From assembly GCA_947374315.1 (NCBI GenBank), contig CANCBK010000011.1, positions 1 to 41,224 of the forward strand: a stretch of DNA of 41,224 bases, in the 5' to 3' direction. Shown here piece by piece: positions 1 to 3,397 of this stretch. The notes beneath the pieces were generated by a model. That model ran no database searches and was not told where the DNA came from. It worked only from the letters and a program-made list of their open reading frames with translations. This DNA is from Burkholderiaceae bacterium. GTDB taxonomy: Bacteria; Pseudomonadota; Gammaproteobacteria; Burkholderiales; Burkholderiaceae. Each line of letters opens with the position of its first letter. The stretch's first letter is position 1. The position numbers and the translations under genes were made by a program.

Positions 1-376
1 GAGCCCTTTGAGAGACTCGTTTAGAGCCAAACAACATAATTCCTAAAAAAGTTGCCTCAAGAAAGAATGCCGATAAAACTTCGTAGCCAAGTAAGGGTCC
101 TGCTATATTGCCTACCGTTTGCATATATCCAGGCCAGTTGGTTCCAAACTGAAAGCTCATCGTAATGCCACTGACAACACCAAGCGCAAAGGTTAAGGCA
201 AATATCTTGACCCAGAATTGATAGGCTTCGCTCCATACTGAGTCACCAGTTTTATTAAATTTAACTTTGAAATAAAAAAGCACCCATCCCAATGCAATCG
301 ATATCGTTGGGAAAAGAATATGAAAAGTCATATTCGAAGCAAATTGAATTCTGCTCAAAATAAGCGTATCAAGCAT
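1..376 (-). CDS. cydA: Cytochrome bd-type ubiquinol oxidase subunit I, N-terminal part
   Basis: The first 125 codons of a quinol oxidase subunit I are present; the rest lies beyond the left edge. The enzyme reduces O2 with quinol electrons in the inner membrane without pumping protons through a haem-copper centre. The N-terminus carries the family pattern of two hydrophobic helices, the His of the MTFHILFP stretch (equivalent to the haem b595 ligand near residue 19 in E. coli), the FQFGTNWPGYM motif, and FFLEATFLG, whose Glu matches the conserved proton-path Glu. The ATG is preceded by AAGAGGT about 6 nt upstream on the minus strand, which supports this start. Family assignment is firm. Whether it is the CydAB or the cyanide-insensitive CioAB form cannot be decided from this part. 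Confidence 0.9.
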   Translation of the reverse strand, partial: MLDTLILSRIQFASNMTFHILFPTISIALGWVLFYFKVKFNKTGDSVWSEAYQFWVKIFALTFALGVVSGITMSFQFGTNWPGYMQTVGNIAGPLLGYEVLSAFFLEATFLGIMLFGSKRVSQRA

Positions 377-626: not shown

Positions 627-641
627 GTCCTTTTAAAGGAC
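627..641. promoter_or_regulatory. Perfect 7-1-7 dyad upstream of cydA, possible operator
   Basis: GTCCTTT-T-AAAGGAC is perfectly symmetrical and lies about 250 bp upstream of the cydA start. Its symmetry and length suit a dimeric regulator. I do not recognise the motif and the role is inferred. Confidence 0.25.
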
Positions 642-711: not shown

Positions 712-830
712 ACATCTTCAAGGTCCCTTTTTCTCGAACCAGCGAAATATACCAAGCGTAATGGTAGTCATCCCCACCATCTTAGGACTCGCACACTCAA
801 CCATTGTTAATACAGTAGGAACATAAAACA

Positions 831-856
831 AAACCCCCACTTAAAAGTGAGGGTTT
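831..856 (-). terminator. Terminator-like hairpin after the outermost tRNA fragment
   Basis: AAACCC and GGGTTT pair, followed inward by one mismatch and a CACT/AGTG stem with a 4-nt loop. On the minus strand the hairpin is followed by a T-rich run (GGGTTTTGTTTTATG). It occupies the same position relative to the tRNA fragment at 862-892 as the terminator at 2159-2180 does to the intact tRNA-Phe, and would stop transcription from the glutathione S-transferase gene. Confidence 0.55.
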
Positions 857-861
857 CTGAG

Positions 862-892
862 ATTCTTGGCGACCCGGGGCAGAATCGAACCA
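862..892 (-). repeat. Diverged tRNA 3'-end fragment (copy C)
   Basis: 31 nt match the 3' end of the tRNA-Phe gene and its 3' flank (2185-2215) with three differences: it includes CCA, the 3' acceptor strand and part of the T loop. No tRNA body follows, so it is not a functional tRNA. It could be an old tRNA-Phe copy or the end of another tRNA. The T-stem partner is not conserved, so the match breaks near the T loop as in copy A. Confidence 0.6.
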
Positions 893-911
893 GGGTGGAG
901 GATGTCTGATC

Positions 912-1595
912 CTACATCTTTAGCCTTTCATTGCCTGGAAAGAGATTCTTTATGGACTCTTCATCGACCTCTGTCTTGAAAGTGAAATTGGTCTTAATGG
1001 CCTCCACTGCTTGAGCACTCGGCTTGGCATTAATCTCATCTAACAAACGCTTCACGCTAGGCAACTTATCCCAAGCACCTTCACCCAATACAAAAGGAAT
1101 TATCCTAGCCCAGCCCCAAACAGACATATCCACAATACTGTATTCACTGAGCATATAAGGCTGTTTAGAGAGGCGATCTTCAATTAATAACCAATGACGC
1201 CATGCCTAAAAATCATATCGATTGACCGCATATTCCTTGGGTTCTGGAGCAAAGTATTTGAAGTGAGCGGCTTGCCCACAATAGGGACCAATACCCGTTG
1301 CTACAAACATGAGCCATGAATACAGCTCAGCATGCGCCTGTGGCGTATTTGCCGGCATGAACTTACCAATCTTCTCGCCTAAGTACAGCATGATGGCGGT
1401 ACTATCAAAAACATGAATACCACCATCGACCAAAGCCGGCGTTTTACCATTGGGATTGATTGCCCTAAATTCTGGAGTGTGCTGATCGCCCTTGCGGGTA
1501 TCGGTCACAATAATTTCGTAAGGCGTATTGGTCTCTTCTAAATACAGAGCTACTTTTGCTGGATTGGGTGATGGGTGATAGTAGAGCTTGAGCAT
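912..1595 (-). pseudogene. Glutathione S-transferase interrupted by one in-frame amber codon
   Basis: A complete glutathione S-transferase frame of about 227 codons is broken only by TAG at 1206-1208. The first part begins MLKLYYHPSPNPAKVALYLE, the thioredoxin-like glutathione-binding domain, with NPNGKTPALVDGG and DSTAIMLYLGEK (cis-Pro loop and the glutathione-contacting DSTAI motif). After the stop the same frame continues AWRHWLLIEDRLSKQPYML, then the helical C-terminal domain to the stop at 912. The ATG at 1595 is preferred to an upstream TTG because family homology begins there. Either the gene is a recent pseudogene or the stop is read through or suppressed. The protein would be cytosolic and conjugate or reduce electrophiles with glutathione. 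It ends 19 nt from copy C and starts 37 nt after copy A of the tRNA-derived repeat. Confidence 0.8.
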
Positions 1596-1632
1596 ATTTT
1601 TATTCCTAGAGATGTTCGTTTTTAATAATAAC

Positions 1633-1695
1633 CACAAATGAAAAAAACACCCGAAGGTGGTTTTAGTGCTTCTTGGTGGCCCGGGGCGGAATCGA
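1633..1695 (-). repeat. tRNA-Phe 3'-end plus terminator repeat (copy A, truncated)
   Basis: This 63-nt segment matches 2149-2211 at 59 of 63 positions. It contains the last 22 nt of the tRNA-Phe gene (CCA, acceptor strand, T arm up to the T loop; 1674-1695) and the terminator hairpin that follows it. One difference (A for C at 1647) breaks a base pair of the hairpin stem. The tRNA body is absent. The arrangement resembles an attachment-site duplication. Confidence 0.85.
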
Positions 1696-1712
1696 TTAGG
1701 GCGTAGGAGTTC

Positions 1713-2111
1713 TCATCCTTGCGGAAAGTGCTCGATATGAACCTCACCTTGCCGCCCGAAATAGTTGACATACTTTCCAGCTATCCAAACGATGTATCCA
1801 ATACAGCCGGCAGACATCGTTAGCTTAATAAACTCAGGGTATCTAACCGCATCACTTTGAGCACCACGAATGGCTGAAACAACATCTTCTTTATTAAATG
1901 AACTTGGAATCTCAATTGAAGGTATTGCCATGGGAATAGTAAATGCCCCATTGCCTGGCAAATAATAAGTCGTAGATTGATTCCGATAGTCAGCGAAGTA
2001 GGACTCAACGCCAACCTCAATTAAGCGGCCCAATGCCTCTGGGAACGTTAACAAGCCAGCATGAGATTCACGAGCGCATTTTTCAATAACTTCTTTTGTA
2101 TTCGGATTCAT
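1713..2111 (-). CDS. DUF1398 family protein
   Basis: A 132-residue soluble protein recognisable as the DUF1398 (YbcV-like) family: an N-terminal helical part with AGLLTFPEALGRLIEVGVESY, a tyrosine-rich YYLPG segment, and the family's C-terminal signature AGCIGYIVWIAGKYVNYFGR followed by GEVHIEHFP. The family's biochemical function is unknown to me. The ATG at 2111 is preferred over the TTG two codons upstream because AAGG lies 6 nt before it. The gene sits alone between two copies of the tRNA-Phe 3'-end/terminator repeat: it starts 37 nt after copy B and stops 17 nt before copy A, which suggests it arrived as a unit. No transposase or integrase accompanies it. Confidence 0.8.
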   Translation of the reverse strand: MNPNTKEVIEKCARESHAGLLTFPEALGRLIEVGVESYFADYRNQSTTYYLPGNGAFTIPMAIPSIEIPSSFNKEDVVSAIRGAQSDAVRYPEFIKLTMSAGCIGYIVWIAGKYVNYFGRQGEVHIEHFPQG

Positions 2112-2148
2112 AAGCAACCTTAAATTGATAGCTTGAATTATCTCGCCT

Positions 2149-2211
2149 CACAAATGAAAAAACCACCCGAAGGTGGTTTTGGTAATTCTTGGTGGCCCGG
2201 GGCGGAATCGA
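2149..2211 (-). repeat. tRNA-Phe 3'-end plus terminator repeat (copy B, in the intact tRNA)
   Basis: This is the reference copy of the 63-nt direct repeat. It overlaps the 3' end of the functional tRNA-Phe gene (2190-2211) and its downstream terminator. It is 516 nt from copy A in the same orientation, with four mismatches. Confidence 0.85.
2159..2180 (-). terminator. Rho-independent terminator of tRNA-Phe
   Basis: On the minus strand AACCACC-TTCG-GGTGGTT forms a 7-bp stem with a UUCG tetraloop, extended by A-T pairs and followed by a T-run. It begins 10 nt after the CCA end of tRNA-Phe. Copy A (1643-1664) has the same hairpin with one stem mismatch. Confidence 0.85.
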
Positions 2212-2265
2212 ACCACCGACACAAGGATTTTCAATCCTCTGCTCTACCGACTGAGCTACCAGGCC
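2190..2265 (-). tRNA. tRNA-Phe (anticodon GAA)
   Basis: A 76-nt cloverleaf folds on the minus strand: acceptor GGCCTGG/CCGGGCC with one G-U pair, D arm with AGCTCAGTCGGTAGAGC, anticodon stem AGGAT/ATCCT with the loop carrying GAA, and T arm GGTGG-TTCGATT-CCGCC. The CCA is encoded. A TATAAT hexamer at 2276-2281 lies 10 nt upstream of the 5' end. Its 3' end has truncated copies at 1674-1695 and 862-892, which marks it as a probable integration target. Confidence 0.96.
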
Positions 2266-2401: not shown

Positions 2402-2740
2402 TTATGCAGCTACGGCTTTAGTTAACAGTTTGGATAGGCTATCGTAATGTTTCATCGCTAACTTGGTAGGAGCCGCTTTCTTTTTTCTACCATCCATCTT
2501 GTCGGTTGTTAACTTTACATAGCCCATTGTGACAAGATTCTTTACCCTTCCATGCAAAGTGGCCTGCGAACCAATTTTGCTCAAATGTATTAAATCGCCA
2601 ACTAGGATTTCACGCCCTTGCGAATAGGCAAGCATTACTGCATCCAGCAACTGCTCTTCTGTAGCATCTAACTTCTTATTTGCGTCCAAGCCAGCTATTG
2701 CATCGATGAGGTTTAGAAAGCGGATATATGAATTATTCAT
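2402..2740 (-). CDS. Winged-helix DNA-binding protein, MarR-like
   Basis: A 112-residue protein with the layout of a small winged-helix regulator. An N-terminal helical segment is followed by ATEEQLLDAVMLAYSQGREI, a helix-turn-helix around LIHLSKIGSQATLHGRVKNL (residues about 50-70), and a wing with GYVKLTTDKMDGRKKK. The SQATLHGRVKNLVTMGYV stretch corresponds to the MarR-type recognition helix and first wing strand. No ligand-binding domain is present. A perfect 12-bp inverted repeat at 2789-2823, 48 nt upstream of the start, is a plausible operator. The ATG is the only sensible start. The target genes are unknown; the membrane protein upstream on the same strand is one candidate. Confidence 0.7.
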   Translation of the reverse strand: MNNSYIRFLNLIDAIAGLDANKKLDATEEQLLDAVMLAYSQGREILVGDLIHLSKIGSQATLHGRVKNLVTMGYVKLTTDKMDGRKKKAAPTKLAMKHYDSLSKLLTKAVAA

Positions 2741-2788
2741 TTTGGTTATTTAGCTTATTAGGAACAAGTTATCTTTGATGTTGATTTT

Positions 2789-2823
2789 ATTAATATCAAA
2801 CTACTACATGATTTGATATTAAT
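2789..2823. promoter_or_regulatory. Perfect 12-bp inverted repeat, candidate operator
   Basis: ATTAATATCAAA and TTTGATATTAAT are exact inverse complements separated by 11 nt. The right arm overlaps the stop codon of the membrane protein gene and the whole element lies directly upstream of the winged-helix gene. The arms are AT-only apart from one C/G and no T-run follows, so a binding site is more likely than a terminator. The two half-sites are about two helical turns apart, as a dimeric regulator would require. Confidence 0.55.
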
Positions 2824-3397
2824 TCTTTATTCCCTTAATAAAATTGATAATAATCAATTTATTCTTAACAATTAACATCGCCAAACATACAACTATGGCA
2901 TTACCAGCAAAATTGCTCATCACCGTTGTGAAGCCGCTATGAAATAAGCCGCCACTCATCTGCCCAATTGTTAGGGCGCTAACCACATAGGCGAATACAA
3001 ATCCGTTCACAATACTTGTTGCGGTAGCCAATACAACTATTTGGTAATACTGAAGATTTGACAAATCTCTATCCACCTTCATTAGCTTTAGCCCATACTC
3101 AACCACCAAATACAAAGCGAGAGTGACAGAGGCTGCGGCAAGCAACCAACTAGTTAATGGCTGCGAAGAATCTGTAAACATTAAGCGAGCGAAGATTGCC
3201 AATCCAGTTCCAAGCGCTCCACGCCACCTGAAAATTAAAACAGCAAAAAGCTTTATGCCAGCGGGAAGAAATAAAAAATAGGTGACGGAGCTATTTTTTA
3301 ATTGCGGAAGAAAATACATGGGCGCCACAAAAATCCAATACAGCGCAAATGAGATGGCAAGCTGAAGGAGGATGTTTTTAATATTATTCAGACACAC
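2819..3397 (-). CDS. Integral membrane protein with MASE1-like features
   Basis: A 192-residue hydrophobic protein with five or six predicted membrane segments (residues about 5-30, 38-58, 60-74, 80-103, 117-142 and 159-180). The FLPAGIKLFAVLIFRWRGALG stretch resembles the core of MASE1-type sensory membrane domains, which occur fused to signalling enzymes. Here no output domain follows, so it would be a free-standing membrane unit. The frame opens with GTG at 3397; an ATG one base upstream is in another frame and closes at once, so start choice is uncertain. It lies upstream of and co-directional with the winged-helix gene, with the inverted repeat between them. Function is not recognised. 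Confidence 0.6.
   Translation of the reverse strand: MCLNNIKNILLQLAISFALYWIFVAPMYFLPQLKNSSVTYFLFLPAGIKLFAVLIFRWRGALGTGLAIFARLMFTDSSQPLTSWLLAAASVTLALYLVVEYGLKLMKVDRDLSNLQYYQIVVLATATSIVNGFVFAYVVSALTIGQMSGGLFHSGFTTVMSNFAGNAIVVCLAMLIVKNKLIIINFIKGIKN

What the first reader, a model, noticed from the sequence alone, without database searches (positions are those of the whole stretch)
831..2265. Single-gene modules bounded by tRNA-Phe 3'-end plus terminator repeats
The 63-nt unit made of the tRNA-Phe 3' end and its terminator (2149-2211) is repeated at 1633-1695 with only 4 mismatches, and a diverged version of the tRNA-end plus hairpin plan stands at 831-892. Both truncated copies break off in the T loop. 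Each interval holds exactly one gene in the tRNA's orientation. Both genes start 37 nt after the preceding repeat, and they stop 17 and 19 nt before the next. This looks like serial insertion of minimal cassettes at a tRNA gene, each bringing a tRNA end and a terminator so that the tRNA stays intact. No integrase is present. It recalls tRNA-anchored elements such as tycheposons, but here the cargo is one gene per unit. Tandem duplication followed by gene replacement is the alternative.
Basis: partly seen in the sequence, partly recalled or inferred. Interest (0 to 1): 0.72.

Follow-up and report, generated by a model that had tools for sequence, protein, structure and literature searches.

The report
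Gene cassettes stacked behind a tRNA gene
Behind their tRNA-Phe gene, freshwater Polynucleobacter bacteria keep a row of exchangeable one-gene packages, each starting with a copy of the tRNA's tail and a transcription stop, that come, go and change order between species much like the cassettes of an integron, although no recombinase gene was found in the single-gene packages examined.

Summary
The window is Polynucleobacter-like. Of 186 genomes in that genus, 111 hold at least three copies of the tRNA-Phe 3' end, clustered where positions were listed. I took 302 sites from 38 genomes, window included.

Class B sites (216) bound short modules: 208 modules end in one, median 1,051 bp, 110 with a single ORF. 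Each site joins a recurrent left arm (consensus AGGATNAGNCATCCTCGGCCCTGG) to the tRNA from T loop to CCA, then a terminator. Same-gene modules with different neighbours show that terminator and left arm travel with the gene and that exchange falls mainly in the 22-bp tRNA core. The window's first cassette is 516 bp in five genomes and 99.2% identical to copies in two others, one of which matches the window's chromosomal flank at only 75%. One genome pair is a clean filled/empty site of 1,061 bp.

Recombinases were found only in four 8-11 kb class A islands, which use the anticodon loop; none in the class B modules. Best reading: integrase-less cassettes exchanged site-specifically in trans. 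The recombinase is unidentified; homologous recombination is not excluded.

The parts
2190..2265 (-). intact tRNA-Phe (gaa), anchor of the array
   Evidence: ARAGORN
2190..2211 (-). 22-bp core of the tRNA (T loop to CCA), the exchange zone of the first site
2149..2189 (-). terminator (CCACC type), start of cassette 1
1696..2211 (-). cassette 1, 516 bp: tRNA 3' end, terminator, gene, left arm; recurs at 516 bp in L028, L031, L060, L067 and 517 bp in L030
1713..2117 (-). DUF1398 gene of cassette 1 (likely start ATG at 2111)
1696..1720 (-). left arm of the second site; overlaps the stop codon of the DUF1398 gene
1674..1695 (-). second core copy, 0 mismatches to the tRNA
1633..1673 (-). terminator (CCACC type), start of cassette 2
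889..1695 (-). cassette 2, 807 bp, holding a GST gene
912..1595 (-). GST-family gene, broken by an in-frame stop at 1206-1208; intact relatives exist (L003, L025, L058, L072)
889..913 (-). left arm of the third site
867..888 (-). third core copy, 3 mismatches
825..866 (-). terminator of a different type (CCCTCAC), also seen at L019 and L054
627..641 (.). palindrome GTCCTTTTAAAGGAC, part of element X; marks a third, incomplete module

Best explanation
The locus is the tRNA-proximal end of a cassette array. Each cassette is [22-bp tRNA-Phe 3' end, terminator, upstream region, one gene or a small operon or gene pair, left arm]. Shown: cassettes are gained, lost, reordered and transferred between species as whole units, and exchange falls mainly in the 22-bp core running from the T loop to CCA. 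Inferred: a circular or transient cassette recombines by its core with the tRNA gene or with another core, so the tRNA is rebuilt with the cassette's 3' end and terminator, and the old 3' end is pushed downstream behind the cassette's left arm. Inferred: a site-specific recombinase acts in trans, supplied from outside the class B modules, perhaps by helper elements such as the dual-recombinase islands found in the same arrays. Inferred: each cassette's terminator keeps tRNA and gene transcription apart, so insertion is nearly neutral for the tRNA.
For: Same-gene module pairs with different neighbours: before the gene, excess identity is 0.194 (95% 0.087 to 0.299) after the core and 0.012 (-0.044 to 0.068) in the left arm; after the gene it is 0.288 (0.219 to 0.355) in the left arm and 0.052 (-0.001 to 0.109) after the core (79 pairs in 20 gene clusters and 141 pairs in 22). 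In the 16 pairs at least 97.5% identical, mismatches before the gene step from 48-78% upstream of the core to 0-9% in it. Clean empty/filled pair: 1,061 bp, flanks matching for 1,190 nt upstream and 781 nt downstream until the fourth mismatch. Fixed module lengths recur (516 bp in five genomes, window included; 645-646 bp in five of eleven; 1,329-1,330 bp in four of four). 59 of 63 gene clusters present in at least 3 genomes have at least 3 different neighbours on both sides, array ends and unclustered neighbours counted as different, clusters of one module counted apart. Cassette 1 is 99.2% identical to its copy in L060 while the window's chromosomal flank is 75.0% identical to L060 over 1,643 bp. 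Stop codons sit 16-36 nt before the core in 138 of the 175 modules (of 208) where a forward ORF ends near it. Non-consensus core bases are almost never shared between same-gene sites (1 of 122 before and 9 of 216 after the gene), as expected if an intact core is needed to move; young core mutations would also do this.
Against: No recombinase for class B sites is identified. G007 holds class B sites yet has only two PF00589 matches, which I read as XerC and XerD. Homologous recombination would also place breakpoints in the one stretch that all sites share. In 10 of 33 pairs at least 95% identical, the terminators before the gene differ in type or are unassigned, with 18-25% mismatches after the core where the gene shows 1.9%, and positions 23-32 are raised (17%) even in the other 23: not all exchanges lie inside the core. 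The left-arm hairpin has no covariation support. 35 of 216 class B sites have terminators of no assigned type; a good part of the longer modules hold several genes and may be composite.
Confidence: 0.62

Rival explanations
1. Homologous recombination after DNA uptake: the 22-90 nt repeats are only the shared homology by which linear donor DNA swaps cassettes (minimal-mobile-element or replacement model), with no dedicated recombinase.
For: No recombinase found in class B modules; G007 has only two PF00589 matches, read as XerC and XerD; breakpoints fall mainly in the only stretch shared by all sites, with some spread beyond CCA. Recombination hotspots flank replacement islands in P. asymbioticus (passages of PMC5644125).
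Against: Where terminators differ, shared identity is about 22 bp plus a few nt, which is very short for RecA (general knowledge). Simple addition of one cassette, as in the 1,061-bp pair, is not a straightforward double-crossover product. Left arms of similar sequence on unrelated genes are unexplained. Additive islands of Alteromonas are described as varying largely by site-directed recombination (passages of PMC5217437).
Confidence: 0.25
2. Eroded islands: the modules are leftovers of successive ordinary integrase-bearing islands that lost their integrases and most cargo.
For: Four islands of 8.4-10.8 kb with two tyrosine recombinases each sit in the same arrays and end in tRNA-Phe fragments (class A). 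Some modules look composite.
Against: Class A and class B sites break at different places (anticodon loop versus T loop) and have different left arms. Independent erosion would not give 516-517 bp modules in six genomes and 1,329-1,330 bp in four. Cassettes at 99% identity in different contexts show that they move as they are.
Confidence: 0.1
3. Tandem duplication of a tRNA-end/terminator unit followed by gene replacement inside each unit.
For: It would give the repeats seen in the window alone.
Against: Terminator and left arm travel with the gene; modules are shuffled and shared between species; left arms are not derived from the tRNA in any obvious way.
Confidence: 0.03

Closest known systems
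Additive flexible genomic islands anchored at a tRNA gene (Alteromonas fGI1; Ca. Methylopumilus fGI-2 with repeats of the last 20 nt of tRNA-Lys)
   Same: Variable islands at a tRNA gene, gain and loss of cassettes, repeated tRNA 3' ends. Methylopumilus islands are given as 330 bp-42 kb with 1-63 CDS (passages of PMC10872708; passages of PMC4119200).
   Different: Here the commonest unit is one gene with its own terminator and a recurrent left arm, the exchange point is mapped to about 22 bp, the same cassettes are followed through many orders across 37 genomes with modules, and no recombinase was found in the cassettes. Whether the Methylopumilus repeats have the same fine structure was not tested.
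Integrons and their gene cassettes (attI/attC, IntI)
   Same: Arrays of single-gene cassettes in one orientation, a recombination site overlapping the gene's 3' end, shuffling between genomes, recombinase not in the cassette (general knowledge; integron passages of PMC4119200).
   Different: Site is a tRNA-Phe 3' end plus left arm; each cassette carries a terminator and an upstream region; no IntI candidate next to the arrays of the 20 genomes searched; the anchor is a functional tRNA gene.
Tycheposons
   Same: tRNA-anchored mobile elements; reported in Methylophilaceae with a xerD-like recombinase (passages of PMC10872708).
   Different: Tycheposons are given there as 4-200 kbp with a tyrosine recombinase; these cassettes have a median of about 1 kb and none was found.
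Minimal mobile elements of Neisseria and pdif modules of Acinetobacter plasmids (recalled, not searched)
   Same: Small exchangeable gene modules between short repeated or conserved borders.
   Different: Those use conserved flanking genes or XerC/XerD sites, not tRNA ends with terminators.

Membership tests
tRNA-anchored additive flexible genomic island | Variable gene content at a conserved tRNA gene with repeats of its 3' end | tested here: met
tRNA-anchored additive flexible genomic island | Addition or loss of whole cassettes between strains or species | tested here: met
   (30 filled/empty comparisons, not independent; one clean with near-identical flanks)
Integron | attC sites and an adjacent attI | tested here: inconclusive
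   The recurrent sites are tRNA-Phe 3' ends with left arms; no dedicated attC search was run, only a look against the recalled consensus
Integron | IntI integrase next to the array | tested here: not met
   PF00589 search of 20 genomes: inside fetched array stretches only the class A island recombinase of G010 and a match read as xerD 2.5 kb before the G016 array. IntI-specific motifs were not tested, nor IntI elsewhere in the genomes
Integron | Exchange of single-gene cassettes at a conserved site | tested here: met
Tycheposon | Element carries its own tyrosine recombinase | tested here: not met
   None found in 208 class B modules with three models built from 15 island recombinases; remote families could be missed
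Classical integrase island at a tRNA (class A sites) | Tyrosine recombinase plus tRNA 3'-end duplication | tested here: met
   Met by 4 of 34 class A-ended modules, which hold both recombinases; the other 30 do not

The most novel reading that the evidence does not exclude
A genus-wide integron-like gene-capture system in which the 3' end of a housekeeping tRNA plus its terminator serves as the cassette recombination site: integrase-less, self-terminated single-gene cassettes are captured at tRNA-Phe by a recombinase acting in trans, with a tRNA-derived core and a recurrent left arm in the role of attC.
Probability: 0.5. Interest if true: 0.9.

Novelty: new variant of a known kind. Interest (0 to 1): 0.8.

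Why it matters
Single-gene cassette shuffling is known above all from integrons. Here is what looks like a second, independent design built on a tRNA gene, in an abundant and cultivable freshwater genus. It would explain how small genomes trade single genes across species lines without disturbing tRNA expression, and it makes a testable question of how integrase-less modules move. It also offers a natural experiment on where new cassettes and their sites come from.

Tried and rejected
Left-arm hairpin (AGGAT/ATCCT): not supported. In 131 non-redundant arms, paired cells per column were 79-104 against 78-97 expected from independent columns, and the share of arms with a strong stem was 0.69 against 0.64 in shuffles.

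Vehicle search: the strict class B site is in 0 viral contigs; cassette 1 with both cores and terminators gave no match in 72,556 plasmid or 50,697 phage records. The viral pattern was strict and could miss variants.

Outside the genus: a strict class B pattern hit 16 of 398 family genomes, all bearing handles of the genus list. The pattern also missed genus genomes that do have arrays (for example G010, G011, G024), so absence elsewhere is only suggestive.

Terminator as a cassette-specific mark: rejected, since the CCACC terminator also occurs outside arrays. Core positions as a clue to the overlap: position 4 and other A/T positions are most conserved, but AT-biased mutation would do the same.

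Rows dropped: 20 of 322 core hits had no support from left arm or tRNA arm. Pairs with the same neighbours were left out. Position listings were capped (places of about the first 26 genomes only), so clustering was seen there and in the 15 genomes. G003 shows three tRNA-Phe contexts and may be a mixed bin.

Literature: no paper holds both Polynucleobacter and tRNA-Phe. Polynucleobacter with gene cassettes and integron gives 7 papers, none by title or abstract start about this (listing only). Polynucleobacter with genomic islands gives 37, of which 20 were listed. The study cited in PMC5644125 for island acquisition (PMC5244307) is not held, so it may describe part of this locus.

Not tested: other tRNA genes in the same genome; natural competence genes; the organism of the window by name.

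Full report
1. The observation. ARAGORN places a tRNA-Phe at 2190-2265 on the minus strand. The 63-nt unit at 2149-2211 matches 1633-1695 at 59 of 63 positions, and a third copy lies at 831-892. Between them, in tRNA orientation, lie a DUF1398 gene (PF07166, E 3.5e-7) and a glutathione S-transferase gene. The GST frame carries an in-frame stop at 1206-1208; four relatives are intact.

2. Relatives. A search with the DUF1398 protein brought seven loci, three of them titled Polynucleobacter. Behind its tRNA-Phe, L002 holds six further copies of the tRNA end within about 6 kb, and L001 four. In the genus of G002, 174 of 186 genomes match the core with up to 2 mismatches, 111 have three or more copies and 28 have one (counts include the tRNA itself and can include unrelated tRNA-like hits). 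A strict class B pattern hit 16 of 398 genomes of the family, all in the genus list.

3. Site anatomy. From array stretches of 38 genomes, window included, I kept 302 of 322 core hits: 40 at full tRNA-Phe sequences, 46 class A and 216 class B; 37 genomes have modules. Class A copies reach back to the anticodon loop and end modules of median 3,189 bp (n = 34). Class B copies agree with the tRNA only from the T loop on, and are preceded by a recurrent left arm with majority consensus AGGATNAGNCATCCTCGGCCCTGG. Class B-ended modules (n = 208) have a median of 1,051 bp; 110 hold one ORF of at least 60 aa, 46 hold two, 3 none and 49 three or more. In modules up to 1,300 bp the longest ORF has the tRNA's orientation in 110 of 130. 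The first forward ORF starts a median of 120 nt after CCA. In the 175 modules where a forward ORF ends near the next core, the stop codon lies 16-36 nt before it in 138, most often at 22 (36 of 175). Terminators fall into several types, 35 of 216 unassigned.

4. Cassettes move as units. Sixty-nine protein clusters with at least three members recur. Of the 63 found in at least 3 genomes, 59 have at least 3 different neighbours on each side, counting array ends and unclustered neighbours as different and clusters of one module apart. Lengths are fixed: DUF1398 cassettes are 516 bp in five genomes (window included) and 517 in one; a gene pair that I read as toxin-antitoxin is 645-646 bp in five of eleven; a three-gene cassette is 1,329-1,330 bp in four. 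The window's cassette 1 is 99.2% identical to copies in L060 and L067, while the window's chromosomal flank is 75.0% identical to L060 over 1,643 bp (no flank match to L067 was listed). In L003 the GST and DUF1398 genes stand in swapped order.

5. The exchange point. Among same-gene pairs with different neighbours, what follows the core is linked to the gene on its 5' side, and the left arm is linked to the gene on its 3' side. Excess identity over unrelated pairs: before the gene, 0.012 (95% -0.044 to 0.068) in the left arm and 0.194 (0.087 to 0.299) after the core; after the gene, 0.288 (0.219 to 0.355) and 0.052 (-0.001 to 0.109) (79 and 141 pairs). In pairs at least 97.5% identical, mismatches before the gene are 48-78% up to the core and 0-9% inside it (16 pairs); after the gene they are 4-11% up to the core and, where terminators differ, 45-67% beyond it (11 pairs), or 17-26% where terminators are of one type (5 pairs). 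Against a strict core-only exchange: in 10 of 33 pairs at least 95% identical the terminators before the gene differ or are unassigned, with 18-25% mismatches after the core, and positions 23-32 show 17% in the other 23. Non-consensus core bases are almost never shared: 1 of 122 before and 9 of 216 after the gene; just past CCA, at positions 23-26, the counts are 29 of 107 before and 2 of 73 after.

6. Filled and empty sites. Thirty comparisons, not independent, fit the pattern, most between diverged relatives and some with inner sites. The clean one is G073 (empty, L069:14456) versus G021 (filled, L026:9425-10486): 1,061 bp present or absent, flanks matching for 1,190 nt upstream and 781 nt downstream until the fourth mismatch, with the chromosome up to and including the tRNA 90.8% identical over 3,093 bp. 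A 1,060-1,061-bp cassette of the same gene occurs in L022 and L076 with other neighbours.

7. Recombinases. PF00589 matches were listed for 20 genomes. Inside fetched array stretches there are two: the class A island of G010, and a match that I read as xerD about 2.5 kb before the secondary array of G016. Recombinases of 195 aa also lie 4.3 kb before the secondary array of G012 and about 6 kb beyond the tRNA of G015. G007 has only two matches, which I read as XerC and XerD. Models built from island recombinases (7 small, 6 large, 2 mid-sized proteins) found, in 575 array ORFs, only the four class A islands of 8.4-10.8 kb in L014, L046, L047 and L073, each with one small and one large recombinase. 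The models could miss remote families.

8. Cargo. In 120 representative proteins from class B modules up to 2 kb, Pfam matches are scattered: transporters, cupredoxins, hydrolases, tautomerases, acetyltransferases; no recombinase family is among the 25 families shown of 147. PADLOC gives 13 families with one member each, so this does not look like a defence island.

9. Mechanism. The data show whole-cassette gain, loss and transfer with exchange mainly in a 22-bp tRNA-derived core. A site-specific recombinase in trans explains precision, recurrent left arm and simple addition behind an intact tRNA. RecA-dependent exchange is the main rival, because the core is also the only stretch that all sites share, some exchanges seem to lie past CCA, and no enzyme is identified.

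10. Known kinds. It belongs with additive tRNA-anchored islands (passages of PMC4119200; PMC5217437; PMC10872708). It works like an integron, but no IntI candidate adjoins the arrays of the 20 genomes searched and attC was not formally tested; it is not a tycheposon by size or recombinase. I found no description of it in the listings; one relevant paper was not held.

11. Changes on checking. Genome and copy counts, the flank wording and the attC status were corrected, and the terminator results against a strict core-only exchange were added; for these the confidence was lowered from 0.63 to 0.62 and the homologous-recombination rival raised from 0.24 to 0.25.

Noticed in passing
window 627-641; L013-L076, often about 90 nt after a core: Element X: a conserved non-coding stretch with palindromes GTCCTTTWAAAGGAC and GTCGTTTWAAACGAC, about 46 nt apart in the sequences printed, near the start of 93 of 242 modules. 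Of 19 exact GTCCTTTNAAAGGAC places in 8 genomes, 18 lie in arrays; of 42 GTCGNTTNAANCGAC places in 10 genomes, 34 lie in fetched array stretches. Perhaps an accessory recombination arm; function unknown.
   Followed up: partly
L017, L023, L024, L035: Arrays with the same sites stand where no intact tRNA-Phe was found, headed by a longer tRNA-Phe fragment.
   Followed up: partly
L078, L081, L082, L084, L085, L086, L087: A family of islands in this genus with a small (about 190-220 aa) and a large (about 400-460 aa) tyrosine recombinase, in two cases a third of 341 aa, at several chromosomal places.
   Followed up: partly
window 2402-3397: The gene pair just upstream of the tRNA is related to pairs found as cassette or island cargo in L014, L044 and L074 (59.6-62.0% and 27.3-30.9% identity).
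   Followed up: partly
L083:5916-6877 and L084:2794-3755: A one-gene unit between two tRNA-Phe-like cores, with a palindrome between gene and second core, in the same chromosomal neighbourhood in two genomes.
   Followed up: no
window 1-376: The next gene downstream of the third site looks like the start of a cytochrome bd oxidase subunit I (translation, name recalled); whether it is a cassette or the conserved flank was not tested.
   Followed up: no
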